Of a DNA stretch of 14,060 nucleotides, positions 1 to 14,060 are shown piece after piece; positions within the stretch are counted from its first letter, which is position 1, and the number at the start of each line of letters is the position of its first letter. This stretch comes from DASVDK01 sp036562265 [NCBI: Thermodesulfobacteriota bacterium]. GTDB taxonomy: Bacteria > DASVDK01. The translations under genes and the position numbers were made by a program. Location: the NCBI GenBank assembly GCA_036562265.1, contig DATCKS010000434.1, positions 1-14,060 on the forward strand. The letters run 5' to 3'. Below the pieces are notes generated by a model, which saw only the letters and a program-made list of their open reading frames with translations, did no database searches and was not told where the DNA came from.

Positions 1-135
<135 letters not shown>

Positions 136-151
136 CCCGGGTGGGCTGCGG

Positions 152-157
152 TATGCT
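152..157 (+). promoter_or_regulatory. -10-like box TATGCT for a leaderless MFS gene
   Basis: TATGCT lies 7 nt before the ATG at 165, so transcription would begin at or next to the start codon. No Shine-Dalgarno sequence lies before that ATG. CTGACC at 130-135, 16 bp upstream, is a weak -35 candidate and falls at or near the IS110 right end. The same layout recurs at two other genes in the window, which strengthens the call. Confidence 0.45.
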
Positions 158-164
158 CGGCCCC

Positions 165-1721: not shown

Positions 1722-1726
1722 CGCGG

Positions 1727-1732
1727 TACACT
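1727..1732 (+). promoter_or_regulatory. -10-like box TACACT for leaderless TPP-enzyme gene
   Basis: TACACT ends 6 nt before the ATG at 1739, the usual distance from a -10 box to a transcription start. There is no Shine-Dalgarno sequence, so the mRNA is probably leaderless. A -35 match is not evident. Confidence 0.45.
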
Positions 1733-1738
1733 CGGCGC

Positions 1739-3358
1739 ATGGCGACGGTTGCCGAGGTCGTCGTACGCTGCCTCGTGCAGGAAGGGGTCGAGTACGTCTT
1801 CGGCGTCCCCGGCGAGGAGAACCTCGACCTGGTGGACGCGCTGGCCGCCTCCCCGATCCGCATGGTCACGACGCGGCACGAGCAGGGAGCGGCTTTCATG
1901 GCGGACGTCTACGGCCGCCTCACGGGCCGCGCCGGCGTCTGCCTGGCCACGCTCGGCCCCGGCGCGACGAACCTCGTCACCGGCGTGGCCGACGCCAACA
2001 TGGACCACGCGCCGCTCGTGGCGATCACGGGACAGGCGTCGCTCGACCGGATGCACAAGGAGAGCCACCAGTACCTCGACCTGGTGACGCTCTTCCACCC
2101 GATCACGAAGTGGAACGCCCAGATCCGGACGCCGGTCATGACGACGGAGGCGATCCGGAAGGCGTTCAAGCTCGCGCAGACCGAGCGGCCCGGCGCCACG
2201 CACGTGGACCTCCCCGAGGACGTGGCGAAGATGGCGGTCGAGCCGGGGGACGACCGCCCGCTGTTCGTCCAGCACCCGGTCCTGCCGGAGCCGACCCCGG
2301 CGCAGGTCGCGCGCGCGGCCCGCGTCCTCGACGACGCGAAGCGCCCGCTCATCCTGGCCGGCCACGGCGTCGTGCGGGGCCGGGCGTCGGACGCGCTCCG
2401 CCGCTTCGCGGAGCGGACCGGGATCCCGGTCGTGACCACCTTCATGGGCAAGGGGACCCTCCCCGCCTCGCACCCGCTGCACGTCGGCGCCATCGGCATC
2501 CCGGGAGACGACTACATCGCGAGGGCGCTCGCCGAGGAGGCCGACCTCGTCGTCGCGGTCGGCTACGACCTGGTCGAGATCGCGCCGTCCAGGTGGAACC
2601 CGCGGCGCGACCGGACGATCCTGCACGTGAACGCCATGCCGGCCGAGGTGGACGCCGACTACATCGTGGCGGTGGGGCTGGTGGGCGACCTCACGGCCGC
2701 GCTCGACGAACTGGGGAGGGCGGCCCGGCCGCGGCAGGCGGGTGCGTTCGACGCCCTCGTCGGGAAGGCGCGCGCCGAACTCGGCGAGGAGGCCGACGAC
2801 CCGGCCTTCCCGATGAAGCCGGCGCGCGTCGTGGCCGACCTGCGACGCGCCCTCGGGCCGGACGACATCGTCGTGTCGGACGTCGGCGTCCACAAGCTCT
2901 GGCTCGGCCGCCGCTACCCCTGCGAGCGTCCCAACACCTGCATCATCTCGAACGGCTTCGCCGCCATGGGCATCGCGGTGCCGGGCGCCGTGGCGGCGAA
3001 GCTGGCCCTGCCCGAGCGCACCGTCGTCGCGGCCACCGGCGACGGCGGCTTCCTCATGAACTCCCAGGAACTCGAGACGGCGGTGCGGATCGGCACGCCG
3101 ATCGTCGTCGTCGTCTTCGACGACCGGACCTTCGGTCTGATCCGCTACAAGCAGGAGCGGCTGTTCGGCCGCAGCGCCGCGGTCGACTTCTCGAATCCGG
3201 ACTTCGTCCGTTACGCGGAGAGCTTCGGCGCGAAGGGCTACCGGGTCGAATCGGCGGAGGCGCTCCTGCCGACCCTGCGCGAGGCGATCGCGAGCCGGAC
3301 GGTCGCCGTCGTCGCCTGCCCGGTCGACTACCGCTACAACGCGGCCCTCGCCCGCTAG
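1739..3358 (+). CDS. Thiamine-diphosphate enzyme, acetolactate synthase large-subunit type
   Basis: The 539-residue product has the three-domain layout of acetolactate synthase-type enzymes: N-terminal domain about 3-165, central domain about 190-320, C-terminal TPP domain about 370-525. The catalytic Glu that activates thiamine diphosphate is E48 in TRHEQGAAFMADVYGRLTG. The cofactor motif begins GDG at 434-436. The segment HKESHQYLDLVTLFHPITKW resembles the catabolic AlsS type (THQSLDN) and lacks the FQE motif of anabolic IlvB. The expected reaction is condensation of two pyruvates to acetolactate with release of CO2, but related decarboxylases or oxidases cannot be excluded. The metal-ligand position usually Asn (ND or NN) reads D461-D462. 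No regulatory small subunit lies nearby, which also fits a catabolic or divergent role. The start is the only ATG consistent with the family N-terminus. Confidence 0.85.
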   Translation: MATVAEVVVRCLVQEGVEYVFGVPGEENLDLVDALAASPIRMVTTRHEQGAAFMADVYGRLTGRAGVCLATLGPGATNLVTGVADANMDHAPLVAITGQASLDRMHKESHQYLDLVTLFHPITKWNAQIRTPVMTTEAIRKAFKLAQTERPGATHVDLPEDVAKMAVEPGDDRPLFVQHPVLPEPTPAQVARAARVLDDAKRPLILAGHGVVRGRASDALRRFAERTGIPVVTTFMGKGTLPASHPLHVGAIGIPGDDYIARALAEEADLVVAVGYDLVEIAPSRWNPRRDRTILHVNAMPAEVDADYIVAVGLVGDLTAALDELGRAARPRQAGAFDALVGKARAELGEEADDPAFPMKPARVVADLRRALGPDDIVVSDVGVHKLWLGRRYPCERPNTCIISNGFAAMGIAVPGAVAAKLALPERTVVAATGDGGFLMNSQELETAVRIGTPIVVVVFDDRTFGLIRYKQERLFGRSAAVDFSNPDFVRYAESFGAKGYRVESAEALLPTLREAIASRTVAVVACPVDYRYNAALAR

Positions 3359-3834
3359 CGCCGGTCGTCGGCCAGGAGGCCGTCTGGCCCCTCGATCCGC
3401 TCCTCGGCCAGCGCGGTGGTCACGCCGTAGACGGCGTGCGCCGCGATCATCGTCGCGGTCGTCGGCGCGCTCTCCTCGCCGTCCGGGCCGCGGTAGATCC
3501 GCAGGGCGGGGAGCAGGCCGAGGTAGCTGCCGGCCCAGACGAGGCCGCCGAAGAGGAGGCCCGACGCGACCGGCGAGGCGGGCAGGGCCCGCCGCGCGAG
3601 CGCGTAGAGCGCGCCGCAGGCGGCGCCGTAGGCGAAGTGCGCCGCGACCCAGGACGCCTCGAAGGCCTCACCGGAGAGCGCCTCCTCCACCCCCGAGCGC
3701 CTGGCGATGCGCTCGGTGATCCGCCGGGGCGGCGGCGGCCCCATGAGCCCGGCCGTGCGCGAGAGAACGAGCAAGGCCGACATCGCCGTCGTCCCGATCA
3801 CGCCGGCCACCGCGCCGTCGAGGAGCCTCGTCAT
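3355..3834 (-). CDS. DUF1440/YagU-like membrane protein
   Basis: The 159-residue protein begins MTRLLDGAVAGVIGTTAMSA. Its hydrophobic segments lie at about 6-25, 64-84, 91-112 and 135-150, with the pattern H-F-A-Y-G-A-x-x-G-A-L-Y and A-A-H-A-V-Y-G that recalls DUF1440/YagU-like integral membrane proteins of unknown function. The start at 3834 is chosen over an upstream TTG at 3903 because GGGGGTGA (3837-3844), a strong Shine-Dalgarno match, lies just ahead. Its TAG stop and the TAG stop of the convergent TPP gene share the palindrome CTAG at 3355-3358. Family assignment is by eye and moderate. Confidence 0.65.
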   Translation of the reverse strand: MTRLLDGAVAGVIGTTAMSALLVLSRTAGLMGPPPPRRITERIARRSGVEEALSGEAFEASWVAAHFAYGAACGALYALARRALPASPVASGLLFGGLVWAGSYLGLLPALRIYRGPDGEESAPTTATMIAAHAVYGVTTALAEERIEGPDGLLADDRR

Positions 3835-3836
3835 GG

Positions 3837-3844
3837 TCACCCCC
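3837..3844 (-). promoter_or_regulatory. Shine-Dalgarno deciding the DUF1440-like start
   Basis: GGGGGTGA on the minus strand matches the anti-Shine-Dalgarno complement GGAGGTGA at seven of eight positions and lies 2 nt before the ATG at 3834 (5 nt from the GG core). It selects this start over the longer open frame. Confidence 0.55.
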
Positions 3845-4041
3845 GGCACGTCCCCTGCCCCGGCCGTGCCGATCGCGTGGCAACCGCCCCCCTGCGGTGT
3901 CAATCGTCACGCCCGAGGGGCCCGCTTGGTGCGGCACCTACCAGGGATCGAACCGTTCGGCAGGCGAAGCGAGGACCCGGCGCCGCGGCCGCCGGCGGCG
4001 TACGCGCTGGTCCGGCGCCCCGCCGGGCCGGGCACAGCGAC

Positions 4042-4047
4042 AGGAGG
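4042..4047 (+). promoter_or_regulatory. Shine-Dalgarno AGGAGG of the PRC-barrel gene
   Basis: A perfect AGGAGG lies 5 nt before the ATG at 4053 and fixes that start; the open frame itself runs upstream to 3897 without family similarity. The 3835-4052 divergent region otherwise shows only a lone TTGACA on the minus strand (3898-3903) without a matching -10, and a tRNA-3'-end-like string at about 3927-3960. Confidence 0.7.
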
Positions 4048-4052
4048 CACGT

Positions 4053-4880
4053 ATGCTACGACCCGCCACGGAGTATCGGGGCCTGTCGATCGCGGCGAAG
4101 GACGGCGCCATCGGGCACGTGGACGATCTCTTCTTCGACGACGAGAGCTGGACGATCCGCTACGTCGTCGTCGATACGGGGACGCTCCTGCGAGGGCGAG
4201 AGGTGCTGATCTCGCCCATGGCCGTGACCGGCATCGACTGGTCGAAGCGCGAGATCGGGCTCGCGCTGACGCGCGAGCAGATCGAGAACGCCCCCGGTAT
4301 CGACACCGACCGGCCGGTCTCGCGCCAGGAGCAGCTCAAGCAGGAGGCGATCTACCACAACTACTTCGGCTGGCGATACTACTGGGGCGGTCCCGGGCTC
4401 TGGGGCGACTCCGCGATCCCGACGCCGGTCCCGCCGGCCGCGCCGGGCGGCCACCCGGGCGCGACGCGGCCCGAGGACGAGGTCATCGAGGCGGCCGAGC
4501 AGATGCAGATGGGCGACCCGCACCTGCGCAGCGTCGACGAGGTCCTCGGCTACCACATCGAGGCGACCGACGGCGACATCGGCCACGTCGAGGACTTCCT
4601 CGTGGACGAGTCGAGCTGGGCCATCCGGTACATGGTCGTCGACACGAGGAACTGGTGGCCCGGCAAGAAGACGCTCGTCGCGCCCGAGTGGATCGAGAGC
4701 ATCCGGTGGAACGACTCCCGCGTCCGCGTCGACCTCTCGCGGGAGGCGATCCGGCAGGCTCCCGAGTACGACCCGAACGCCCCGCTCTCTCGCGACTACG
4801 AGACGCGGCTCTACGCGGCGTACGGCCGCACGGTCTACTGGGTCGAGGAGGGACGGCTGCGGCGGCGCCGGCGGGCGTGA
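4053..4880 (+). CDS. Tandem PRC-barrel domain protein
   Basis: The 275-residue protein consists of two copies of one unit. Copy 1 (about 7-115) has GAIGHVDDLFFDDESWTIRY and copy 2 (about 163-270) has GDIGHVEDFLVDESSWAIRY; each is followed by a V-V-D-T strand, a Trp-containing strand, an L-x-R-E-x-I-x-x-A-P helix and a Tyr-rich tail (YFGWRYYW in copy 1, TVYWVEE in copy 2). PRC-barrels are small beta-barrels found in the photosynthetic reaction centre H subunit and in RimM, and free-standing ones are often linked to stress or surface functions. No signal peptide or membrane segment is seen, so it is likely cytoplasmic. A 29-bp gap leads to the PPC-domain gene, so the two are probably cotranscribed. 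The exact role is unknown. Confidence 0.85.
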   Translation: MLRPATEYRGLSIAAKDGAIGHVDDLFFDDESWTIRYVVVDTGTLLRGREVLISPMAVTGIDWSKREIGLALTREQIENAPGIDTDRPVSRQEQLKQEAIYHNYFGWRYYWGGPGLWGDSAIPTPVPPAAPGGHPGATRPEDEVIEAAEQMQMGDPHLRSVDEVLGYHIEATDGDIGHVEDFLVDESSWAIRYMVVDTRNWWPGKKTLVAPEWIESIRWNDSRVRVDLSREAIRQAPEYDPNAPLSRDYETRLYAAYGRTVYWVEEGRLRRRRRA

Positions 4881-4909
4881 TCGGGTGCTGGTGTGAGAGG
4901 GAGGCCGCC

Positions 4910-5341
4910 ATGAAGGCCAGAGTGCTCCACGAGGCCGGCGAGCGGACGTTCGCGGTCGTCTTCGACACGGACGACGAGGTGATCGGGGGCCTCCTCGACT
5001 TCGCCCGGAGGTGGAAGGTCACCGCCGCTCGCTTCACGGCCATCGGCGCCTTCCGCCGCGTGACGCTCGGCTACTTCGAGTGGGAGCGGAAGGACTACCG
5101 CAAGATCCCGATCGAGGAGCAGGTCGAGGTGCTCACGCTGGCCGGCGACATCGCGCACGCGGGCGGCCGCCCCGCCGTGCACGCCCACGTGGTCGTCGGG
5201 AAGGCCGACGGCACGGCCCATGGCGGCCACCTCCTCGAGGCGCACGTGCGGCCGACCCTCGAGGTGATGCTGGTCGAGTCGCCGGCGCACCTCGTCCGGG
5301 TGCACGACGACGCCACCGGGCTCGCCCTCATCCGGCTCTAG
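4910..5341 (+). CDS. PPC (DUF296) domain protein
   Basis: The 143-residue protein is a stand-alone PPC domain (PF03479, plant and prokaryote conserved; in plants fused to AT-hooks in AHL proteins). It shows the family's DFARRWKVTAARFTAIGAFR segment, the invariant acidic/aromatic strand LGYFEWERKDYRK, and the putative metal site H91-A-H93 with HGGH (H104, H107) in front of the L-E-A-H-V-R-P-T-L-E-V-M-L strand. Prokaryotic members form trimers with bound metal; their function is not settled, with DNA-binding suggested by the annotation but not proven. The ATG at 4910 is preceded by the purine-rich GAGAGGGAGG (4895-4904). It lies 29 bp behind the PRC-barrel gene and is followed directly by a strong hairpin. 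Confidence 0.85.
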   Translation: MKARVLHEAGERTFAVVFDTDDEVIGGLLDFARRWKVTAARFTAIGAFRRVTLGYFEWERKDYRKIPIEEQVEVLTLAGDIAHAGGRPAVHAHVVVGKADGTAHGGHLLEAHVRPTLEVMLVESPAHLVRVHDDATGLALIRL

Positions 5342-5386
5342 GGGGGCCGCGGCCAGCGAGCGCCGACCGTCCCGCTCGCGGCCCCC
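5342..5386 (+). terminator. GC-rich hairpin directly after the PPC gene
   Basis: GGGGGCCGCG (5342-5351) pairs perfectly with CGCGGCCCCC (5377-5386), and after a 3-nt bulge AGCG (5355-5358) pairs with CGCT (5373-5376). The stem begins on the base after the stop codon. No T-tract follows, so it is either an L-shaped or Rho-assisted terminator or an mRNA 3'-end stabiliser. Confidence 0.45.
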
Positions 5387-5797
5387 GACTCCGCGATCGC
5401 AACGGACCCGGCGCTCGACCAGTGGGGCGTCGTCCCGGCGTCCGGGAGCCGTCCTTCGGCGCGGGCAGCCGGGTCGTCCTCAGCCGTCCCATGCCGCCGC
5501 GCGTCGTTGGCGCCCCGATGGGCCATCCTCCCCTCCCCCTCTCCCCGATCTCGGCGGGATAGGCGCTCCACGGTCGATGACCGGTCGGCGCCTCGGGCGG
5601 CCTCCCCGTGGAGGCCGGCCGTGCCGGGGCGCCGGCGCGTCCGCTATGATCGAGCGGTCGGCCGATCGGGAACCAAACGGTGGGTGTCGCCGCTTGTGCA
5701 CATCGAGGCCACGGCGGCCGGCCCCCGGCCCCCGTGGTCCCGACGACACCATGGACCGCTGACCGCGGCGATGCCGCGTTTGCGAGGAGGACGCACC
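5387..5797. other. Non-coding stretch with hairpin and -10-like box upstream of dienelactone hydrolase
   Basis: Open frames exist here on both strands but are Arg/Pro/Gly-rich and show no family features, so no gene is called. Two things can be seen. An 8-bp stem with a tetraloop (CGGCCTCC, CCGT, GGAGGCCG) lies at 5598-5617. A TATGAT hexamer lies at 5645-5650, with only a weak upstream -35. If used, it would give the hydrolase an untranslated leader of about 140 nt containing the three-codon mini-frame ATG-GAC-CGC-TGA at 5751-5762. No known riboswitch was recognised. Confidence 0.5.
5645..5650 (+). promoter_or_regulatory. Candidate -10 box TATGAT upstream of dienelactone hydrolase
   Basis: TATGAT is near consensus and stands out in this GC-rich DNA. 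The best -35 at 18-bp spacing (GTGCCG) matches only three of six bases, so the call is tentative. It lies about 150 bp before the GTG start at 5798. Confidence 0.35.
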
Positions 5798-6661
5798 GTG
5801 TACGACACCCGCAACCCCGAGCCGCCGTCGGGCGAACTGTCACGCCGGACGTTCGTCGCCACGTCGATCGTCGCCGGGTTCGCCATGGCCGTGCAGCCCG
5901 TTTCCGCGCAGACCATGATCGTCACCGACACCCAGGGCCTCGACGCCGGCGAGGTGCGGATCCCCGTCCGGGACGGGACCATGGCGGCCTACCGCGCCAT
6001 GCCGGCCTCCGGGACGCGGTTCCCGGTCGTGCTCGTCATCTCCGAGATCTTCGGGGTCCACCAGTACATCCAGGACACCTGCCGCAGGCTCGCGAAGCGC
6101 GGGTACTGCGCCGTCGCGCCGGCCCTCTACGCGAAGTACGGCGACGTGTCCACGTTGCCCGACGCCCAGACGATCATCCGCGAGGTCGTGTCGAAGGCCT
6201 CCGACGAGGAGATCGCGAGCTACCTCGACTCGACCCTCGCGTGGGCCGGCCAGGAGAGCAAGGCCGACCTCGCGAGGGCCGGCATCACCGGCTTCTGCTG
6301 GGGCGGCCGGGTCACCTGGATGTACGCGGCCCACAACCCGAGCCTCAAGGCCGGCGTCGCCTGGTACGGCCGGCTCACCCAGGGCTTCCATCCGGGCAGC
6401 AAGAACCCGATCGACATCGCGGCGAGCCTCACGGTGCCGGTCCTCGGCCTCTACGGCGGCGCCGACACCGGCATCCCGCTGTCCGACGTCGAGAAGATGC
6501 AGGCCGAACTGGCGAAGGGGTCGAGCGGCTCGCAGATCCACGTGTACCCGGACGCGCCGCACGCCTTCCACGCCGACTATCGCCCCACCTACCGGAAGGA
6601 GGCGGCCGAGGACGGCTGGGCGCGGATGCTCGACTGGTTCAAGCGCCACGGCGTGGCGTAG
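5798..6661 (+). CDS. Tat-exported dienelactone hydrolase family protein
   Basis: The 287-residue alpha/beta hydrolase belongs to the dienelactone hydrolase family (PF01738), whose type enzyme hydrolyses dienelactone to maleylacetate in chloroaromatic breakdown; many members act on other esters. The catalytic triad is visible as C167 (TGFCWGG), D223 (GGADTGI) and H255 (PDAPHAF), with spacing like the classical Cys-Asp-His triad. The N-terminus carries a twin-arginine signal, SRRTFVATSIVAGFAMA, with likely cleavage after VSA, so the folded enzyme is exported. The GTG start at 5798 is chosen because GAGGAGG (5784-5790) lies 7 nt ahead; an in-frame ATG at 5771 and a longer frame to 5507 lack support. 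The gene stands alone, and a bidirectional hairpin follows its stop. Confidence 0.88.
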   Translation: MYDTRNPEPPSGELSRRTFVATSIVAGFAMAVQPVSAQTMIVTDTQGLDAGEVRIPVRDGTMAAYRAMPASGTRFPVVLVISEIFGVHQYIQDTCRRLAKRGYCAVAPALYAKYGDVSTLPDAQTIIREVVSKASDEEIASYLDSTLAWAGQESKADLARAGITGFCWGGRVTWMYAAHNPSLKAGVAWYGRLTQGFHPGSKNPIDIAASLTVPVLGLYGGADTGIPLSDVEKMQAELAKGSSGSQIHVYPDAPHAFHADYRPTYRKEAAEDGWARMLDWFKRHGVA

Positions 6662-6734: not shown

Positions 6735-7907
6735 TCAGGGCCGCTCCGCCCGCACCTTGTCGAGCGCGCCCGGCGTGAACAGGAGGTCGAGTGCCGTCTG
6801 CGCGAGGAGCGTCGCGCCGGCGCGGATCATCGCCTTCGCGCGCGGCGAGGCGGCCGCGGCGGCGAAGGCGGGCGTGTGGAGGCTCGTCCCCAGGTCGGCC
6901 ACCTCGAGGTAGGCGTGCAGGCCGGGGATCCGCTGGCTCACGTTGCCGAAGTCGGTCGATCCGGCCATCTCACCACCCCGCGGCCCCTCGGCGAGCCCGA
7001 GCGCCTCGAGATTCCCGCGAAAGAGCGCCGACAGCGTCGGGTACTCGCGCACCGGTTCGTACGGGTACCCGGTCGTCTCGGTCGTCATGCGGCAGCCGGT
7101 GGCCGTGGCCGCCCCCTCCGCGACGGCGAGGACCCGCCGGTGCAACTCCCGGACGTAGGCCGGGTCGAGCGCCCTCACGTAGAACTCGGCCTCGGTGTAG
7201 TCGGGGATGATGTTGGGCTTGTCGCCGCCGCGGGTGATCACGCCGTGGATGCGGGCGTCGCCGGTGATCTGCTGGCGCATGAGGCCTATGCCGGTGAAGA
7301 GGAGGATCATGGCGTCGAGGGCGTTCACGCCGAGGTGCGGCGCCCCCGCCGCGTGCGCGTTCCTGCCGTGGAAGGCGACCTTGAAGGGGATCAGGCCGAG
7401 CGCCGGGGCCCACGCGGCGGTGCGGTCCCAGGGGTGGATCATCATGGCGGCGTCGATGCCGTCGAAGACCCCGGCGTCGAGGAGCGCCTGCTTGCCGCCG
7501 CCGCCCTCCTCGGCCGGCGTCCCGAGGACGATCACGCGACCCGCCTCCGGCGGTACGAGGTCGCGGCAGGCAAGCCCGGCGCCGACCGCGATGGTCGCGA
7601 TGAGGTTGTGCCCGCAGGCGTGACCGATCTTCGGGAGCGCGTCGTACTCCGCCAGCATCGCGACCGTCGGCGCCCCCGGCTTCGCCGGACCGGTCTCGGC
7701 GAGGAAGGCCGTTGCCACCCCGCCGACGCCCTGGGTCACGCGGAAGCCGCGCGCGGCGAGGAACTCCCCGAGCCAGGCGGCCGCCTGGCGCTCCTCGTAG
7801 CCGAGTTCGGGGTTCGCATGGATCCGGTCGGCCAGCTGCTCGAGTTCGGGACCGGCAGCCTCGACCGCCGCCTTCGCCTTCGCCTTCCGTGTCGAGAGAT
7901 CCGCCAT
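6735..7907 (-). CDS. M20 family amidohydrolase/peptidase (M20D, AbgB-like)
   Basis: The 390-residue protein is an M20D-type metallohydrolase, the group with p-aminobenzoyl-glutamate hydrolase, IAA-amino acid hydrolases and N-acyl-amino acid amidohydrolases. Seen motifs are AEYDALPKIGHACGHN (H96, C98, H100), TPAEEGGGG (E133 catalytic base, E134 ligand), MMIHP (H158) and a central lid domain near HGRNAHAAGAP. These would bind two metal ions and cleave an amide of an amino acid. ATG at 7907 is preferred because AGGAG lies 8 nt before it; an ATG at 7913, six bases upstream, overlaps the stop of the upstream gene (TGATG) and is possible. It is the last gene of the leftward operon. The substrate is not known; its neighbour suggests an N-carbamoyl or N-acyl amino acid. 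Confidence 0.85.
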   Translation of the reverse strand: MADLSTRKAKAKAAVEAAGPELEQLADRIHANPELGYEERQAAAWLGEFLAARGFRVTQGVGGVATAFLAETGPAKPGAPTVAMLAEYDALPKIGHACGHNLIATIAVGAGLACRDLVPPEAGRVIVLGTPAEEGGGGKQALLDAGVFDGIDAAMMIHPWDRTAAWAPALGLIPFKVAFHGRNAHAAGAPHLGVNALDAMILLFTGIGLMRQQITGDARIHGVITRGGDKPNIIPDYTEAEFYVRALDPAYVRELHRRVLAVAEGAATATGCRMTTETTGYPYEPVREYPTLSALFRGNLEALGLAEGPRGGEMAGSTDFGNVSQRIPGLHAYLEVADLGTSLHTPAFAAAAASPRAKAMIRAGATLLAQTALDLLFTPGALDKVRAERP

Positions 7908-7912
7908 GCGCA

Positions 7913-8407
7913 TCACTCCTTCTTCCTGGCGACGAAGCGGAAGTCGCAGTGGGACGCCCCCTGCATCAGTGTCCGGGTACGGGTGAGCGTCACGTCCGGA
8001 TTGAAGCCCTCGATGAGCGCGAAGTCGCGGCTGCACGACAGAACGTCGCCCAGCTCCGGGATGCCGAGCGCGCGGTACATCTCGGCGTATCGGCAGCGCG
8101 TCACGTCGAAGGCGAGCCGCTCGTCCGTTTGCTCGTGCACCGTCATCCGGTAGGCGTCCCCCCGTTTCCAGTCGTCGAGCGCCTCGGCGAACCTCGAGAG
8201 GGAGTTGCCGCCCATCCGCCGCGCGAGCTGCCGCCCCTGCTCGCGCGCGACCTCGGTGATCACCCGCCGCACGATGCCGATCACGCGCTCGCGCCCGAAC
8301 TCCGCGCCGAGCGCCTCGATCACCGGCGCGAGGATCCGCGCCTCGACCTCTCGCCGCGTCAGCACCCCGATCCGCTCGTTCAGGGTATCCGGGAGCCCCT
8401 CCGCCAT
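7913..8407 (-). CDS. L-2-amino-thiazoline-4-carboxylic acid hydrolase family protein
   Basis: The 164-residue protein matches the ATC_hydrolase family (PF14196) by its C-terminal half: [20 protein letters not shown], then [16 protein letters not shown] and GASHCDFRF. Conserved C105, C125, D128 and C154 can be picked out as candidate functional residues. The founding member opens the ring of 2-amino-thiazoline-4-carboxylate to N-carbamoyl-cysteine; most relatives are uncharacterised, so the true substrate may differ. ATG at 8407 is chosen because GGAGG lies 5 nt ahead and family length fits; the frame runs further to 8689 only as antisense of the SDR gene. Its stop overlaps the possible ATG of the M20 amidohydrolase, which points to coupled translation and a shared pathway. 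Confidence 0.8.
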
Positions 8408-8451
8408 CGTCTCCTCCCCGGGTCGCGCCTCGACCCTCTCCCCACCCTTCG

Positions 8452-9252
8452 CTATTCCGCGGTCCAGCCGCCGTCGACGTAGAGCGTCTGACCGGTGATG
8501 TACGACGCCAGGTCGGACGCGAGAAAGAGGACCGGCCAGGCGATCTCGGCCGGCTCGGCGACCCGCCCGAGCGGTGTCCGCGCGCGCACCTCGTCGAGGA
8601 AGCCCGGACGCGCGAAGACCGGCTCGACGAGCGGCGTCCGGACGTAACCGGGGGCAACCGCGTTCACCCGCACGCCGTGGGGCGCCCACTCGAGCGCCAG
8701 GACCCGCGTGATCTGGTCCACCCCCGCCTTGGTCGCCCCGTAGGCCGCCATCTCCCGCCGGCCGACACGGCCGGCGATCGAGCCGATGGAGACGACCGCA
8801 CCCGACCGACGCGCGACCATGTGGCGGCCGACGGCCCGCGTGAGGAAGAAGAGCCCCCTGAGGTTGGTGGCGAAGAGTCGGTCCCAGACCGCCTCGGTCG
8901 CCGCGAGGGCCGGCTCGCGTGCGCTGGTCCCGGCGTTGTTCACGAGGACGTCGATGCGACCGTGCCGTGCCGCGACGGCGTCCGCGAAGCCCGCGGCAGC
9001 GCCGGTGTCCGCAACGTCGAGGGCAACCGTCTCGGCGCGCCCGCCCGCCTCCTCCACCGCATGCGCCACCTCGGCGAGCGGGGCCGGGTCCCGCGCCGTG
9101 AGCACCACCGTGGCTCCCGCCGCGCCGAAGGCTCTCGCCACCGCCTCGCCGATGCCGCGGGAGGCGCCGGTCACGACCGCCACCTTCCCGCGGAAGTCGA
9201 GCGACGGGTGGCGCTCGGCTGCCCTGCGGTCCACGGCCGGCCTGCGGCTCAC
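8452..9252 (-). CDS. Short-chain dehydrogenase/reductase (classical SDR)
   Basis: The 266-residue protein is a classical SDR oxidoreductase using NAD(P). Features: cofactor motif TGASRGIG (28-35), D79 for the adenine ring, NNAG (105-108), catalytic S158, Y171 and K175 (YGATK), and a C-terminal DGGW typical of FabG-like enzymes. LTARD after the second strand (R54) hints at NADP preference. The GTG start at 9252 overlaps the LivM stop as GTGA, and GGAG lies 8 nt upstream. An unusual 20-residue Arg-rich lead precedes the Rossmann fold, so a later start is possible but none with a good site was seen. Its place after the permease genes suggests it acts on the imported compound. Confidence 0.88.
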
Positions 9253-10196
9253 GGCCGTCTCCGCTTGCCGGTGAAGAGCGGGTAGAGCCCCTGCGGCAGG
9301 AAGAAGATCAGGGCCACGTAGGTGAGGCCGACGAAGATGAGCCAGGAGCGGAAGATCTCGCTCAGCACCTCGCGCGCCGCGATGACGAGGCTCGCCCCGA
9401 GGACGGGCCCCACGAGCGTCCCGGTCCCCCCGAGGACCGCGTACAGCACGGCGTCGCCGGAGAGCGCCCACCCGACGTTCTCCGGGGAGGCGATCTTCTC
9501 GTGCCAGGCGGTCACGACCCCGGCCAGACCGGCCACCGCGCCGGACACGCCGAAGGCGACCGTCTTGTAGGCCTCCACGCGGTACCCGGCGAACCGAATC
9601 CGGACCTCGTTCTCGCGGATCCCCTCGAGCACCCGCCCGAACGGCGTGCGCGTCAACGCCGAGAGGCCGAGGTAGGCGAGGACGAGCAGGACGAGGACCA
9701 CGTAATAGAGCGTCGTCTGGTCGTCGAGCGCGAGGCCGAGCATCGGCGCCACGCGCACGCCGTTCAGCCCGTTGTCGCCGCCGGTGAGGCCACCCGGGTC
9801 TGACAGGACGAGGAGGAAGATCGCCTCGGCGAAGGCAAAGGTCACCAGGAAGACCGCCACCGACCCCACGCGCGCGGCGAAGAAGCCGACGACGAGGCCG
9901 AGCAGCGCGGCGGCGCCGACGCCGAGCACGAGGCCGACGGGCGCCGAGGTGACGCCGCCCTTGACGACCAGCATCGCGGCGACGTACGCGCCGGTGCCGA
10001 AGAAGGCCGCGTGGCCGAAGGAGAAGAGGCCCACGAAGCCGTTGAGGAAGTCCCAGGCCATCGCGTAGAGCCCCATGAGCATCATCCGGACGACGACGTG
10101 CTCGTAGTACGTGGCACTCCCGGTCGCCGACAGGAGCGGCGGGAGCGCGGCCGTGGCCGCCACCGCGGCGACCCCGACCAGGCGGCGCGCCGTCAC
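9249..10196 (-). CDS. livM: Branched-chain amino acid type ABC permease LivM
   Basis: The 315-residue inner-membrane permease belongs to the BPD_transp_2 family. It has about nine or ten hydrophobic segments, the LivM motif [19 protein letters not shown], and the cytoplasmic coupling loop [19 protein letters not shown] that contacts the ATPase. The end [15 protein letters not shown] is typical. The GTG start at 10196 overlaps the LivH stop in GTGA, so translation is probably coupled. Together with LivH it forms the channel through which the solute bound by the periplasmic protein passes. Confidence 0.92.
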
Positions 10197-11065
10197 TTGA
10201 GGATCCCCGCGCGGCCGAAGAGGCCGAGCGGCCGGAAGACCAGTACGGCGATCATGGCCGCGAAGGCGAGGATCGTGCCGGCGGTCCCGGACAGGTAGGC
10301 CACCCCGAAGGCCGTGACCTGCCCCACGAGGATGCCCGCCACCACCACCCCCGCGAGGCTGCCGAGGCCCCCGAGGATGACCACGACGAAGAGGATCATG
10401 AGCAGGTCGAAGCACATGGTCGGGTAGACGGAGAGGATGGGACCCGCCAGCACGCCGGCCACGCCGGCGACGCCGGTGCCGAGGGCGAAGACGAGGGAGT
10501 TCACGCGGGGCGCATTGGTCCCCATCGCCTGCGACACCTCGCTGTCGAGGGCGATCGACTGGACGATGATCCCGAGCGTGGTGCGGTGGAACGCCAGGGC
10601 CAGCCCGCCCATGAGCGCCGCCGTGAACGCCATGACGAAGAGCCAGTAGGTCGGGTAGACGATCGGACCGATCGTGATCAGGCCGGTGAGCCCGTCCGGG
10701 ATGTCGGAGGTCCGGGGCACCGGCCCCCAGATGAGCTTGGCCACTTCCGAGGCCACGATGGCGACGCCGAGGGTCACCACGAGGACCTGCATCCCGTCGC
10801 GCTTCCACCGGACGAGCGGTCGGATGGCGGCGACCTCGAGCAGGAGCCCGAGCGCGGCGTTCACCGCGAAGGCCACGACGAGCGTGAGCGGGAACCCGAG
10901 CGTCGGCGTGAGCCCGATGCCGAGGTAGGCGCCGAGCATGTAGAAGACGCCGTGGGCGACGTTGACGATGCCCTGCAGCCCGAAGACGATCGTCAGCCCC
11001 GCGGCCAGCAGGATGTAGATCGCCCCGATGGTGAGGCCGTTGAGCACCTGGAGGACGATGGCCAC
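10193..11065 (-). CDS. livH: Branched-chain amino acid type ABC permease LivH
   Basis: The 290-residue permease has typical LivH length and motifs: QVLNGLTIGAIYILLAAGLT, FGLQGIVNVAHGVFYMLGAY, and the coupling-loop region TTLGIIVQSIALDSEVSQAM. It ends [14 protein letters not shown], normal for the family. GTG at 11065 is taken because GGAGG lies 7 nt ahead. It lies 11 bp after LivF and overlaps LivM by 4 bp. The open frame continues upstream as antisense-like Arg-rich sequence across livF, which is not part of the protein. Confidence 0.92.
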   Translation of the reverse strand: MAIVLQVLNGLTIGAIYILLAAGLTIVFGLQGIVNVAHGVFYMLGAYLGIGLTPTLGFPLTLVVAFAVNAALGLLLEVAAIRPLVRWKRDGMQVLVVTLGVAIVASEVAKLIWGPVPRTSDIPDGLTGLITIGPIVYPTYWLFVMAFTAALMGGLALAFHRTTLGIIVQSIALDSEVSQAMGTNAPRVNSLVFALGTGVAGVAGVLAGPILSVYPTMCFDLLMILFVVVILGGLGSLAGVVVAGILVGQVTAFGVAYLSGTAGTILAFAAMIAVLVFRPLGLFGRAGILK

Positions 11066-11076
11066 GACAGCGCCTC

Positions 11077-11799
11077 CTACACGTCCACGCCGAGGTAGCG
11101 CCCGAGGAGCGCCGAATCGGCCTCGAGGTCGCCGATGTCGCCGGCAGCCACGATCCGCCCCTTCTCGAGCACGTAGCCGCGGTCGGCCACGGCGAACGCG
11201 GTGCGCACGTTCTGCTCCACGAGGAGGATGGTGAGCCCCTGCCCCTTGAGGGTGCCGAGCGCCTCCACGATCGTCTCGACCACGCGCGGCGCGATCCCCT
11301 CGGTCGGTTCGTCGAGGACGATCAGCTCGTCGCCGCCGACGAGGGCCCGCGCGATGGCGACCATCTGCTGCTCGCCCCCGGAGAGGCTGCCGGCCTGTTG
11401 GTGGCGGCGCTCGGCGAGCACGGGGAAGAGCGCGAAGACCCGATCGAGCTGAGCCGACCAGTCGAGCCTCCCCCTGGCCTTGTTGGCGAACGGGATGCGG
11501 AGGTTCTGGAGGACCGTGAGCGGGCCGAAGAGCTGACGCCCCTCGGGCGAGTAGCCGAGGCCGAGCCGGGCGATCTCGTGCGGCGGCCGCCGGGTGATGT
11601 CCTCCCCCTTGAACGTGATGGTCCCCGACCGGGCGGGGTTGAGCCCCGTGATGGCCCGCAGCGTCGTCGTCTTGCCCATGCCGTTGCGGCCGAGGAGGGC
11701 GACCGCCTCGCCCCGGCGGACCTCGAGCGTCACCTCGAAGAGGACCGTCGTGTCGCCGTAGCCGGCGCTGACCCGATCGAGGCTCAGCATCGCGCTCAT
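11077..11799 (-). CDS. livF: ABC transporter ATP-binding protein LivF
   Basis: The 240-residue ATPase has the full motif set: Walker A GRNGMGKTT (37-45), signature LSGGEQQM, Walker B LIVLDEPTEGIAP and switch histidine region LLVEQNVRTAF. GRNGMGKTT and LDEPTEGIAP are typical of LivF rather than LivG. The ATG at 11799 overlaps the LivG stop as ATGA. It is expected to pair with LivG on the LivHM permease. Confidence 0.93.
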   Translation of the reverse strand: MSAMLSLDRVSAGYGDTTVLFEVTLEVRRGEAVALLGRNGMGKTTTLRAITGLNPARSGTITFKGEDITRRPPHEIARLGLGYSPEGRQLFGPLTVLQNLRIPFANKARGRLDWSAQLDRVFALFPVLAERRHQQAGSLSGGEQQMVAIARALVGGDELIVLDEPTEGIAPRVVETIVEALGTLKGQGLTILLVEQNVRTAFAVADRGYVLEKGRIVAAGDIGDLEADSALLGRYLGVDV

Positions 11800-12539
11800 G
11801 CCTGGCCCCCGCCGAGGTAGACGGCCTGCACGTCGGGGTTCGCCCGGATCGCGTCCGGCGGACCTTCCGCAAGGACCTCGCCGCGGTGGAGGACGGTGAC
11901 CCGGTCCGAGATGGACATGACGACCTGCATGTCGTGCTCGACGATCACGAGTGTGATCGCCGGGGCAAGCCCACGAAGGATCGCCGCGGTCCGCCGCGTC
12001 TCGTCGGGCGACATGCCGGCCGTCGGCTCGTCCAGGAGGAGGAGCTTCGGCTCGGCAGCGAGGACCATGGCCATCTCGAGCAGACGCTTGTCGCCGTGGG
12101 AGAGGAGCCCGGCCGGCAGGTCGGCCCGCGAAGCGAGGTCGAAGCGCTCGAGCGCCGCCGCCACGCGCCGATCGATCTCGTCGGGCGGTCGCGTGGCGCG
12201 GGCGAACGGTAACCCGGAGGCCCGTGCTCGGCCGCTCGCGAGGAGCGCCACGTTCTCCCGGACGGACAACCGGGGGAACACCGACGAGACCTGGAACGAG
12301 CGCACCACCCCCAGCCGGAAGATCTCCGGGGGCGCAAGCCCCGTGATATCGCGCCCTGCAAAGACGATCCGCCCCTCGGACGGTGCGAGCACACCCGTCA
12401 CGAGGTTGAAGAGCGTGGTCTTGCCGGCGCCGTTGGGCCCGATGATGGAGCGGACCTCGCCCGGCGCCACCTCCAGGCTCACCCGGTTGACGGCCGCAAG
12501 CCCCCCGAAGCGGCGGGTGAGGCCCTCGGTGCGGAGCAC
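11796..12539 (-). CDS. livG: ABC transporter ATP-binding protein LivG
   Basis: The 247-residue ATPase starts at GTG 12539 with LRTEGLTRRFGGLAAVN, the usual LivG opening. Motifs: Walker A GPNGAGKTT (34-42), Q-loop VVRSFQ, signature LSHGDKRLLEMAM, Walker B KLLLLDEPTAGMSP and switch VIVEHDMQVVM. The C-terminal NPDVQAVYLGGG is the LivG-type tail. The start lies 8 nt after the stop of the binding-protein gene with no good Shine-Dalgarno, so reinitiation by coupling is likely. Its stop overlaps the LivF start. Confidence 0.92.
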   Translation of the reverse strand: MLRTEGLTRRFGGLAAVNRVSLEVAPGEVRSIIGPNGAGKTTLFNLVTGVLAPSEGRIVFAGRDITGLAPPEIFRLGVVRSFQVSSVFPRLSVRENVALLASGRARASGLPFARATRPPDEIDRRVAAALERFDLASRADLPAGLLSHGDKRLLEMAMVLAAEPKLLLLDEPTAGMSPDETRRTAAILRGLAPAITLVIVEHDMQVVMSISDRVTVLHRGEVLAEGPPDAIRANPDVQAVYLGGGQA

Positions 12540-12547
12540 GGCGCGAG

Positions 12548-13807
12548 CTACAGCTTCGTGGCGGGCTCGCAGCCGGTCTTGCCGCAGGGGACGAGGAGCG
12601 CGTCCGGATCGCCGGCCGGCTCGACGTAGGCCGGGTAGATCCCGTACTTCTCGGTTTGCCGGCCCTCCACCATGAAGATCGGCATCACGGCCGCATGGTC
12701 GCACTCGCGGAAGTAGACGTCCCCCATGACCGAGTTGCGGTGCCGCAGGCGGCGGAGCTCCCGCACGACGGTGAGCGGGTCGGTCGTCCCCCCGTTCTGG
12801 AGCGCCATGGCGAGCATCTCGACCCCCGTGTACGCGCGGGCCGCCGTTGGGTCGGGCCACGCCTTGTGCAGGGCGTGGTAGGCCTGGGCAAACTGCTGCA
12901 TGCGCGGGGCCGACGGGTGCTCGTACGTGAAGCACTCGCCCGCCGTCATCCCGAGCACCGCGTCGCCCGCCGCGACGGCGTCGATCTGCGACCAGAAGTT
13001 GTGGTGCAGGTGCGCGCGGACGCCCATCTGCCGGATCTGCTTGATGATGCGGGCGTAGCCGGCGCCGAACACGACGAGGCCGATCACGTCGGGCTTGGCG
13101 GCGATCGCCTTGGTCACGTACGGCGCGTAGTTGGTCGTGCCGAGCGGAGGGTACTCCTCCCCCACGATCTCGATCTTCCGCCCGAGACTCGCGGCCTCCT
13201 TCATGAGCTCGACGGAGTTGCGGCCCCAGGAGTAGTCGTCGCCGATGAAGAACCACCTCGCGCCGTACTTCTTCGCCGCCTGCGCGGCCGGCAGCGAGAA
13301 GAGCCGCGAACTGGGGCAGAGGGCGAAGCTGTACGTCCCGCAGGCGGGCGGCTCGGAGATGGCCGGGTTGCCGGAGCCGGTGTTGATGAACGGGACCTTC
13401 CCTTCCTTGTTCAGGTACTCCTGGACCGCGAGCGACACCGAAGAGAAGATGACGCCGGTGAGGACGTGCACCCGGTCGCGCTCGACGAGCTTCTTGGCCT
13501 TCGAGAGCCCCGTGGCGACTTTGCTCTCGGTGTCCTCGAGCACGAGCCGCACCGGCCGGCCGCCGATGCCCGGCTTGCCGAGGACGCCGCCCGTCTTGTT
13601 GATCTCGTCGACCGCCATCTGGATGCCGAGCGCCTGCTGGCTCCCGATGGTGGAGGCGACGCCCGACAGCTCGCAGAGGGCGCCGATGCGGATCTCCTCC
13701 TGCTGGGCGAGCGCCCGCGAGCGGATGAAGGGCGTGGCGCCGAGGGCCGCCGCGCCGACGGCCGCGGCCCTGAGTACCTGTCGCCGAGTGGTCGCCGTGT
13801 CGCTCAT
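12548..13807 (-). CDS. Branched-chain amino acid type ABC substrate-binding protein, Tat signal
   Basis: The 419-residue periplasmic binding protein is of the Peripla_BP_6 type (LivK/AmiC-like). It has a twin-arginine leader, TTRRQVLRAAAVGAAALG, with likely cleavage after RALA (residue 34), followed by IRIGALCELSGVASTIG and AVDEINKTGGVLG typical of lobe 1. Lobe-2 features include the GDDYSWGRNS and GYARIIKQIRQMG stretches. Cysteines near the middle (PPACGTYSFALC) and at the end (PCGKTGC) could form disulfides outside the cytoplasm. ATG at 13807 is chosen for GGAGG 7 nt upstream and the Tat leader; the frame continues to 13921 without support. Such proteins bind amino acids, amides, urea or aromatic and short-chain acids, and the ligand is not evident here. 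Confidence 0.92.
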   Translation of the reverse strand: MSDTATTRRQVLRAAAVGAAALGATPFIRSRALAQQEEIRIGALCELSGVASTIGSQQALGIQMAVDEINKTGGVLGKPGIGGRPVRLVLEDTESKVATGLSKAKKLVERDRVHVLTGVIFSSVSLAVQEYLNKEGKVPFINTGSGNPAISEPPACGTYSFALCPSSRLFSLPAAQAAKKYGARWFFIGDDYSWGRNSVELMKEAASLGRKIEIVGEEYPPLGTTNYAPYVTKAIAAKPDVIGLVVFGAGYARIIKQIRQMGVRAHLHHNFWSQIDAVAAGDAVLGMTAGECFTYEHPSAPRMQQFAQAYHALHKAWPDPTAARAYTGVEMLAMALQNGGTTDPLTVVRELRRLRHRNSVMGDVYFRECDHAAVMPIFMVEGRQTEKYGIYPAYVEPAGDPDALLVPCGKTGCEPATKL

Positions 13808-13838: not shown

Positions 13839-14060
13839 TCAACGCTGTCTCGGTGCGGCGTACACCCCGCGGGCCACCGCGACCAGCTCGCCGCTGGCGT
13901 CCCGGATCTCGACGTCGGCAACCCCGACGGTTCGACCGGTCCGCACGGCGCGGCCCACCGCGACGAGGTCGCCGCGGCGCGCGGGCCGCAAGTAGTCGAT
14001 CCGGAGGTCGATCGTCGGCACGCCGGCGCCGTAGCGCGTGGCCACCGCGTAGTCGCCCGT
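13839..14060 (-). CDS. Hotdog-fold thioesterase (PaaI-like), C-terminal part; 5' end outside window
   Basis: Seventy-three residues are visible, in frame up to the window edge, beginning TGDYAVATRYGAG. The run VPTIDLRIDYLRPARRGDL, then the strands VGRAVRTGRTVGVADVEI and a D-A-S-G-E-L-V-A-V-A-R-G turn, is the C-terminal half of the 4HBT/PaaI hotdog domain (T-x-D-L-x-x-x-Y-L-R-P-A). These enzymes hydrolyse acyl-CoA thioesters such as phenylacetyl-CoA derivatives in the cytoplasm. The active-site Asn/Asp of the long helix lies outside the window. A GTG at 14045 could be mistaken for a start, but the fold needs more sequence upstream. It lies 31 bp before the binding-protein gene in the same direction and likely heads or precedes the operon. 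Confidence 0.8.
   Translation of the reverse strand, partial: TGDYAVATRYGAGVPTIDLRIDYLRPARRGDLVAVGRAVRTGRTVGVADVEIRDASGELVAVARGVYAAPRQR

What the first reader, a model, noticed from the sequence alone, without database searches (positions are those of the whole stretch)
7907..9252. SDR, ATC-hydrolase-family and M20 amidohydrolase coupled to a Liv-type transporter: candidate catabolic system
Seen: one leftward operon joins a complete K-G-F-H-M Liv-type transporter with an SDR, a PF14196 protein and an M20D amidohydrolase, the last two with touching stop and start. Known: in Pseudomonas, thiazoline-carboxylate is opened by an ATC hydrolase and the N-carbamoyl-cysteine formed is cleaved by an amidohydrolase. 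Inferred: this operon imports a cyclic or N-substituted amino acid-like compound and hydrolyses it in two steps. The M20D type differs from the N-carbamoyl amino acid hydrolases usual for that pathway, so the substrate may be new.
Basis: partly seen in the sequence, partly recalled or inferred. Interest (0 to 1): 0.6.

Follow-up and report, generated by a model that had tools for sequence, protein, structure and literature searches.

The report
Catabolic operon with ATC-hydrolase-like enzyme
A bacterium carries a tightly packed set of genes that probably imports a small nitrogen-containing compound and breaks it down by hydrolysis; the parts are known kinds, but this combination was not seen in the relatives examined and the compound is unknown.

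Summary
In detail: LivK-G-F-H-M, SDR, PF14196 and M20D genes form one leftward operon, with six of eight junctions overlapping.

Import plus stepwise hydrolysis remains likeliest, but the link to ATC-to-cysteine chemistry is weak. The PF14196 protein lies outside the clade whose genes sit beside M20 enzymes (13 of 17 rows, mostly carbamoylase type); only 2 of its 80 nearest scanned relatives have a same-strand M20 within 5 kb. The M20D is HmrA/Xaa-Arg-dipeptidase-like. All five transporter subunits score best on urea-transporter models, below cut-off.

The exact combination was not found elsewhere, but pieces recur with other partners. The closest PF14196 (74%) directly follows the same thioesterase (69%) between AMP-binding ligases; its next neighbour in the tree ends a nitrile hydratase operon; the orthologous transporter precedes a luciferase-like monooxygenase. 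The fold resembles V4R/DmpR sensors (kinship already published), with three invariant cysteines.

Verdict: new variant of a known kind, substrate unknown, modest interest.

The parts
13839..14060 (-). 4HBT (PaaI-like) thioesterase, 5' end cut off by the window edge
   Evidence: PF03061 49.8 bits on 73 aa; 69% identical over 71 aa to the thioesterase directly upstream of PF14196 in G076
12548..13807 (-). LivK-type substrate-binding protein; RR motif near the N-terminus suggests Tat export (recalled motif)
   Evidence: PF13458 233.8 bits; only NCBIfam model at E <= 1e-20 is UrtA, 79.3 bits, cut-off 492.75
11796..12551 (-). LivG-type ATPase
   Evidence: PF00005, PF12399; best NCBIfam UrtD 254.1 bits, cut-off 304.1
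11077..11799 (-). LivF-type ATPase
   Evidence: PF00005; best NCBIfam UrtE 234.5 bits, cut-off 285.8
10193..11080 (-). LivH-type permease
   Evidence: PF02653 107.6 bits; best NCBIfam UrtB 171.9 bits, cut-off 250.3
9249..10196 (-). LivM-type permease
   Evidence: PF02653 134 bits; best NCBIfam UrtC 151.8 bits, cut-off 296.2
8452..9252 (-). short-chain dehydrogenase/reductase (SDR) with TGxxxGIG, NNAG and YxxxK motifs (motif names recalled)
   Evidence: PF13561 235.5 bits; PRK07231 subfamily 242.5 bits, cut-off 215; motifs located
7913..8407 (-). PF14196 (ATC_hydrolase) protein, 164 aa; Cys105, Cys125 and Cys154 invariant in the family sample
   Evidence: 135.2 bits; tree; residues; model pLDDT 91.8
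6735..7913 (-). M20D metallohydrolase, HmrA / Xaa-Arg dipeptidase branch; a second possible ATG at 7907
   Evidence: TIGR01891 221 bits; PDB 3ram E 7e-69, 7yh4 E 4e-67; CGH, EE and two His motifs located (their role as metal ligands is recalled)

Best explanation
A catabolic operon of a Methylomirabilota bacterium, probably of the Rokubacteria type (name recalled). An Urt-leaning member of the Liv/Urt importer family brings in a small polar nitrogen compound (amide-, ureido- or amino-acid-like). The SDR oxidises or reduces an alcohol/carbonyl on it. The PF14196 enzyme, taken to be a metal-dependent hydrolase on a V4R-like fold, hydrolyses a C-N or C-S bond, perhaps opening a ring. The M20D enzyme cleaves the resulting amide to free an amino acid or amine. 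The thioesterase upstream suggests that a CoA ester occurs somewhere in the pathway. Shown: gene order, families, close packing, motifs present, the thioesterase-PF14196 pair shared with G076, host affinity. Inferred: direction and order of steps, chemistry, substrate. PF14196 is treated as an interchangeable hydrolase module, not as an ATC hydrolase proper.
For: Close packing with 4-base overlaps. Family hits above cut-off. In its nearest relatives PF14196 again sits in catabolic-looking runs: G076, AraC - AMP-binding ligase - 4HBT - PF14196 - MDR - AMP-binding ligase - solute-binding protein; G065, nitrile hydratase beta - alpha - a second NHase_beta_N protein (activator-like by recall) - PF14196; Chloroflexota L047, DppA - luciferase-like monooxygenase - SBP3 - PF14196 - M20 (dipeptidase type) - DppB - DppC, an independent version of importer + oxidoreductase + PF14196 + M20. 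The window's thioesterase is matched in 4 of 94 genomes (E <= 1e-12), best in G076 (69%), where it adjoins the closest PF14196. Thirteen residues are invariant in both the catabolic clade (17 rows) and the window group (83 rows): R19, E22, W80, C105, Y111, S124, C125, R127, D128, R143, T146, C154, F156 (a selection, some small residues are too). Fold relatives Bet3, MopR/DmpR, H-NOX: Foldseek E down to 2.3e-5, VIA Z up to 9.3; DmpR binds zinc through Cys151, Glu172, Cys177 and Cys185 (PMC7264223, passages). All five transporter subunits score best on Urt models, whereas the control subunits tested (all five of L002; SBP and LivH of L006) score best on Liv models.
Against: No second copy of the operon was found. 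The orthologous transporter in G059 (LivH 82%, LivF 77% over 162 aa, LivG 69%, LivM 68%, LivK 65%) is followed by a luciferase-like monooxygenase, not the SDR. Most of the 80 scanned relatives of PF14196 show no consistent partner, so the protein may do a general job. Several positions invariant in the catabolic clade (for example 42, 114, 117, 119, 122, 131) differ in most of the window group, and Leu86 of that clade is Tyr in the window protein. No result fixes a substrate. The fold scores are moderate, and proteins of this fold often bind ligands without catalysis.
Confidence: 0.42

Rival explanations
1. The operon is a version of the known ATC route: PF14196 opens L-2-amino-thiazoline-4-carboxylate and the M20 enzyme releases cysteine from carbamoyl-cysteine.
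For: PF14196 match; thirteen residues shared as invariant with the catabolic clade; ABC importer and M20 beside PF14196 in proteobacterial plasmids and genomes.
Against: The protein falls outside the 17-row catabolic clade (support 100/99). The M20 is HmrA-like, not of the hydantoinase/carbamoylase type TIGR01879 seen beside the Pantoea and Sinorhizobium genes. No racemase among the window genes scanned. Differences at positions 20, 24, 114, 117, 121, 131.
Confidence: 0.06
2. PF14196 here is a general-purpose or housekeeping protein (hydrolase, metal binder or ligand sensor) that happens to sit in this operon; SDR, transporter and M20D make a pathway without it.
For: In the 80 scanned relatives the most widespread neighbour family within 5 kb, response regulators as I read the representative, is in 15 of 80 and on both strands; only 2 of 80 have an M20 and 1 of 80 a Dpp permease on the same strand within 5 kb.
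Against: Stop/start overlap with M20D; in run with catabolic genes in all three members of its subclade (window, G076, G065).
Confidence: 0.22
3. The pathway handles a (hetero)aromatic or branched acid as its CoA thioester; PF14196 hydrolyses a ring or thio-bond on the acyl-CoA, the thioesterase releases the product, and the M20D acts last.
For: 4HBT gene upstream of LivK; the same thioesterase next to PF14196 between two AMP-binding ligases in G076; AMP-binding ligase - MDR - 4HBT cassettes in G066 and G065.
Against: No CoA ligase seen in the window, which ends within the thioesterase; the M20D and the Urt-leaning transporter do not call for CoA chemistry.
Confidence: 0.16
4. Nitrile/amide assimilation: the substrate is a ureido, amide or nitrile compound, and PF14196 is an amide-bond hydrolase working beside or instead of an amidase.
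For: PF14196 directly after nitrile hydratase subunits in G065; transporter nearest the urea models.
Against: G065 is the only held locus with nitrile hydratase beside PF14196; none seen in the window; Urt scores are below cut-off.
Confidence: 0.14

Closest known systems
ATC-to-cysteine pathway of Pseudomonas (ATC racemase, L-ATC hydrolase, N- or S-carbamoyl-cysteine amidohydrolase); PMC10821248, passages seen; the primary papers were not read
   Same: PF14196 enzyme (Pfam name) with an M20-family hydrolase downstream (the M20 nature of the known amidohydrolase is recalled); importer genes nearby in proteobacterial loci that look like this pathway
   Different: Window PF14196 lies outside the catabolic clade; M20D instead of carbamoylase-type M20; SDR and thioesterase added; no racemase seen; Urt-leaning transporter
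PF14196 + FAD enzyme + M20D 'aminoacylase' + Dpp clusters on Alphaproteobacteria plasmids (L001, L005, L009)
   Same: Transporter + oxidoreductase + PF14196 + M20D in one run of genes
   Different: Dpp importer, FAD enzyme and another M20D branch; PF14196 of the catabolic clade, 44% or less identical to the window's
HmrA (3ram) and Xaa-Arg dipeptidase (7yh4; PM20D2 by recall)
   Same: Near full-length sequence similarity of the M20D enzyme, motifs aligned
   Different: No PF14196, SDR or importer link is known to me for them; substrate of the window enzyme unknown
V4R / DmpR / MopR / H-NOX / Bet3 fold group; kinship with the ATC hydrolase domain and a three-Cys cluster already stated in PMC5847659 (passage read)
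   Same: Fold of the predicted PF14196 model and a set of conserved cysteines
   Different: Those are mostly sensors or trafficking proteins; PF14196 holds a characterised enzyme (Tashima 2006 as cited in PMC5847659, not read)

Membership tests
PF14196 (ATC_hydrolase) | Pfam profile over its gathering score, full length | tested here: met
   135.2 bits against 28.1, profile 1-145 of 145
PF14196 (ATC_hydrolase) | Three conserved cysteines | tested here: met
   C105, C125, C154 in 117 of 117 aligned rows
ATC-to-cysteine pathway | PF14196 protein in the clade linked to carbamoylase-type M20 or racemase genes | tested here: not met
   Outside the 17-row clade, support 100/99 (bootstrap not settled, correlation 0.934)
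ATC-to-cysteine pathway | Carbamoyl-amino-acid hydrolase type M20 next door | tested here: not met
   M20 is TIGR01891/HmrA-like; the M20s of L004 and L006 are TIGR01879
ATC-to-cysteine pathway | Asp/Glu-type ATC racemase gene | tested here: inconclusive
   None among the window genes scanned, but the operon begins outside the window
ATC-to-cysteine pathway | Enzyme activity on L-ATC and carbamoyl-cysteine | not testable with these tools
   Needs purified proteins
M20D amidohydrolases | TIGR01891 over cut-off and the metal-binding motifs | tested here: met
   221 bits against 153.75; CGH, EE and His motifs
Liv (branched-chain amino acid) transporter | Five subunits K, H, M, G, F | tested here: met
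Liv (branched-chain amino acid) transporter | Subunits reach the Liv models of NCBIfam | tested here: not met
   All below cut-off and below their scores on Urt models; the L002 and L006 controls are below the Liv cut-offs too
Urea transporter (Urt) | Subunits reach the Urt models of NCBIfam | tested here: not met
   Best hits, but all below cut-off
V4R-like fold group | Same fold as DmpR/MopR, Bet3, H-NOX | tested here: met
   Model pLDDT 91.8; 32 PDB chains at Foldseek E <= 0.001, best 2.3e-5; VIA Z 9.3, rmsd 3.9-4.2, 135-139 aligned for the top four rows; moderate scores, in line with PMC5847659
V4R-like fold group | Metal bound by the cysteine cluster | not testable with these tools
   Only conservation seen; DmpR ligands from PMC7264223

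The most novel reading that the evidence does not exclude
The broad PF14196 group outside the catabolic clade, sampled here from 12 phyla, is an uncharacterised family of V4R-fold metal-dependent hydrolases that serves as an interchangeable bond-cleaving module in many catabolic operons (with nitrile hydratase, CoA ligases and thioesterase, luciferase-like monooxygenase, or SDR and M20D), and the window operon shows it coupled to an Urt-leaning importer and an M20D enzyme for a substrate class not yet described.
Probability: 0.3. Interest if true: 0.6.

Novelty: new variant of a known kind. Interest (0 to 1): 0.35.

Why it matters
PF14196 proteins are named after ATC hydrolase wherever they occur. 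The tree and the contexts here suggest that this name fits one clade, while a much wider group, to which the window protein belongs, has no substrate known to me although it keeps thirteen of the residues that are invariant in that clade. The window operon and its relatives G076, G065, L047 and L071 give concrete gene partners from which substrates could be guessed and tested.

Tried and rejected
Own genome: none is held for the window, so co-occurrence had to be tested in relatives. A canonical ATC pathway was considered and rejected on the tree and on the M20 type.

My first census by tblastn (four M20 queries, Liv and Dpp subunits, SDR, FAD and racemase queries) missed an M20 of another branch in L047. 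I found it by reading neighbours and repeated the M20, permease and monooxygenase counts with jackhmmer (installed). Same-strand M20 within 5 kb is thus 2 of 80 (L047, L048), plus M20 genes on the opposite strand in L043 and L082. One search also hit two permeases 1.1 and 4.1 kb downstream of PF14196 on the same strand in L011, a close relative (69-70%); tblastn had not found them, and they score best on B6-transporter permease models, below cut-off, so I do not count them as Liv. One search also shows a generic ABC-ATPase hit near PF14196 in L021 and L089 (25-28% identity). Of the 80 loci, 44 have 5 kb on both sides, so absences in the other 36 are weak.

The rough gene caller failed to call PF14196 in 24 of 80 loci; its spacing tallies are not used, though I read neighbours from it. 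In one search, 1 of 128 sources (L210) gave no PF14196 match; 128 matches became 120 after removing identical ones and 117 after dropping three short fragments (L109, L204, L206). In one search, 3 of 19 Bacillota loci (L247, L256, L258) gave no match to my profile although the Pfam search had found them, and are not in the 16. L003 carries a second, distant PF14196, left out of the scan alignment but kept in the tree.

Viral fold library: nothing at E <= 0.001. A search of 247 Acidobacteriota genomes for the M20 at E <= 1e-90 found none, with no positive control. A DNA-level search of the three-gene stretch in plasmids found no record covering 80% of it. G101 holds the most identical M20 (55%) and the only SDR match at E <= 1e-70 (50%), but on different contigs.

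Literature: seven searches. One search listed 8 papers holding any of five PF14196/ATC terms, none in title or abstract; I read passages of two (PMC5847659, PMC10821248) and saw the other six as listings only. Searches listed one paper each, none, and (first 20 of 327) nothing that looked relevant. Searches were listings, from which I read passages of PMC7264223. PMC127550 is not held. The library lacks most subscription journals, so I make no claim that the operon or the wider PF14196 group is absent from print.
Full report
What is there. The window's right half holds one leftward gene string: a thioesterase cut off by the window edge (13839-14060), LivK (12548-13807), LivG (11796-12551), LivF (11077-11799), LivH (10193-11080), LivM (9249-10196), an SDR (8452-9252), a PF14196 protein (7913-8407) and an M20D hydrolase (6735-7913). 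Five junctions overlap by four bases, PF14196 and M20D share one base of stop and start, and the two gaps are 31 and 44 bases.

Host. A genome in the phylum of a named NC10/Methylomirabilota record (G059) has the same five transporter genes in the same order with 65 to 82% identical proteins. The two nearest PF14196 proteins in the tree, G076 (74% identical) and G065 (67%), are in that phylum too; by identity alone some other rows, such as the Acidobacteria loci L011 and L028 (69-70%), lie between them. The window's GC content is 73%, against about 70% for those phylum loci. A Rokubacteria-type host is likely; that name is from recall.

Linkage in relatives. Within the phylum, PF14196 occurs in 9 of 95 genomes (E <= 1e-10) and the M20 type in 78 of 95 (E <= 1e-60), often as a tandem pair; in none of the 9 do they share a contig, though these are drafts. 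The SDR has one match at E <= 1e-70 in 94 genomes, 50% identical, on a contig where no other operon gene was found. In G059 the transporter is followed by a luciferase-like monooxygenase, cut off by the contig end.

What does recur. The window's thioesterase is matched in 4 of 94 genomes at E <= 1e-12. The best, G076 at 69%, lies directly upstream of the closest PF14196. There the order is AraC, AMP-binding ligase, thioesterase, PF14196, MDR dehydrogenase, AMP-binding ligase, solute-binding protein. G099, the other close match (71% over 68 aa), has it after OtnK-like (PF07005) and PdxA genes and before an amidohydrolase gene, without PF14196 in the stretch read. G065, the next neighbour of the window protein in the tree, has PF14196 behind nitrile hydratase beta, alpha and a second NHase_beta_N protein. 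In Chloroflexota L047 a member of the same broad group stands in DppA, luciferase-like monooxygenase, SBP3, PF14196, M20, DppB, DppC, and its sister L071 has monooxygenase, PF14196, DUF1684, with Dpp genes further on. These look like independent versions of importer and/or oxidoreductase plus PF14196, with or without M20.

Family tree. I collected PF14196 proteins from plasmids, the GTDB scan and the phylum searches and built a tree of 117 rows (its bootstrap had not settled). Seventeen proteobacterial rows form one clade (100/99). An M20 lies on the same strand within 5 kb in 13 of 17, and a Liv or Dpp permease in 8 of 17 (counted); the M20 of L004 and L006 is of the hydantoinase/carbamoylase type TIGR01879, that of L001 is TIGR01891. 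The window protein is outside, with G076 and G065 (99/94), in a broad, probably paraphyletic set of 83 rows from 12 named phyla. For the 80 GTDB-scan loci of that set the same-strand figures within 5 kb are 2 of 80 with an M20 (L047, L048), 1 of 80 with a Dpp permease (L047), none with a Liv permease and 3 of 80 with an SDR hit; L011 has two permeases of another type. The 80 were chosen for similarity to the window protein and 36 lack a full 5-kb flank on one side or both, so the contrast is clear but not an unbiased estimate. Liv cassettes next to PF14196 do recur elsewhere: in 5 of the 16 Bacillota loci where my profile found it, and in Pseudomonadota (2 of 27 with Liv permeases, 7 of 27 with Dpp permeases). 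In L143 of this phylum a distant PF14196 follows SDR-K-H-M-G-F and precedes dehydrogenase E1 genes.

Transporter. Scored against NCBIfam, all five window subunits do best on urea-transporter models (79.3, 254.1, 234.5, 171.9 and 151.8 bits for A, D, E, B and C) and worse on Liv models, all below cut-off. Control subunits beside catabolic PF14196 genes (all five of L002, though only 215.4 against 213.2 bits for its LivF; SBP and LivH of L006) do best on Liv models, also below cut-off. So the importer leans to the Urt side; the ligand need not be an amino acid.

PF14196 as an enzyme. The model (76-sequence alignment, pLDDT 91.8) resembles Bet3, MopR/DmpR sensor domains and H-NOX. That kinship and the three-cysteine cluster were already noted in PMC5847659 (passage read). 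Cys105, Cys125 and Cys154 are invariant in 117 of 117 rows, and Trp80 in all 100 rows of the window and catabolic groups. DmpR holds zinc with three Cys and one Glu, beside a strictly conserved Trp (PMC7264223, passages read). I infer a metal site. Thirteen residues, listed under the best explanation, are invariant in both groups; other positions invariant in the catabolic clade (42, 114, 117, 119, 122, 131 among them) differ in most of the window group, and positions 20, 24 and 121 also part the groups. I infer related chemistry with a changed pocket and substrate.

M20D. Best solved relatives are HmrA and Xaa-Arg dipeptidase (E 7e-69 and 4e-67), far ahead of IAA-amino acid hydrolase (E 6e-15). 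The metal-binding motifs are present. The enzyme should cut a peptide-like or acyl amide; nothing here points to N-carbamoyl activity.

Conclusion. The likeliest account is import, oxidoreduction, PF14196 hydrolysis and M20D amide cleavage of a small nitrogen compound, with a CoA step hinted at by the thioesterase. The families and the close packing are shown; the chemistry and its order are inferred. The ATC reading is unlikely in its strict form. The wider point is that the name 'ATC hydrolase' covers a large group of unknown substrate, to which this protein belongs.

Noticed in passing
L142:6200-9187 (G065): Nitrile hydratase beta, alpha and a second NHase_beta_N protein are followed by a PF14196 gene 67% identical to the window's.
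   Followed up: partly
L141:6182-13752 (G076): Run with two AMP-binding ligases, 4HBT thioesterase, PF14196, MDR dehydrogenase and a solute-binding protein; AMP-binding ligase - MDR - 4HBT cassettes also in L264 and L265.
   Followed up: partly
L047:6111-13994 and L071:8761-11288: Chloroflexota loci with a luciferase-like monooxygenase upstream of PF14196; in L047 with an M20 and Dpp importer genes around it.
   Followed up: partly
L012, L019, L020, L037, L061 (upstream of PF14196): Five Methylomirabilota-type loci of the scan have a homologous gene just upstream of PF14196; the L019 copy is a flavin-reductase-like protein (PF01613).
   Followed up: partly
L111-L140 (Methylomirabilota genomes): The window-type M20D is in 78 of 95 genomes of the phylum and often occurs as a tandem pair; a conserved gene nearby in six of the eleven wider loci compared is Thy1 (ThyX) in the one copy scanned.
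   Followed up: partly
L143:7209-15618 (G013): SDR, LivK-H-M-G-F, a distant PF14196 and dehydrogenase E1 genes in one direction.
   Followed up: no
window 111-6661: Left half holds ordinary genes: MFS transporter, DUF2784, TPP enzyme, DUF6789, PRC-barrel protein, PCC-domain protein and a dienelactone hydrolase convergent with the operon.
   Followed up: no
L207, L211-L213, L215-L217 (Pseudomonadota): A far PF14196 clade sits at the end of Dpp importer operons in seven genomes.
   Followed up: no
L079:8878-9920 (Gemmatimonadota): An SDR-like gene (32% identical to the window's) starts about 40 bases behind a window-group PF14196 gene on the same strand.
   Followed up: no
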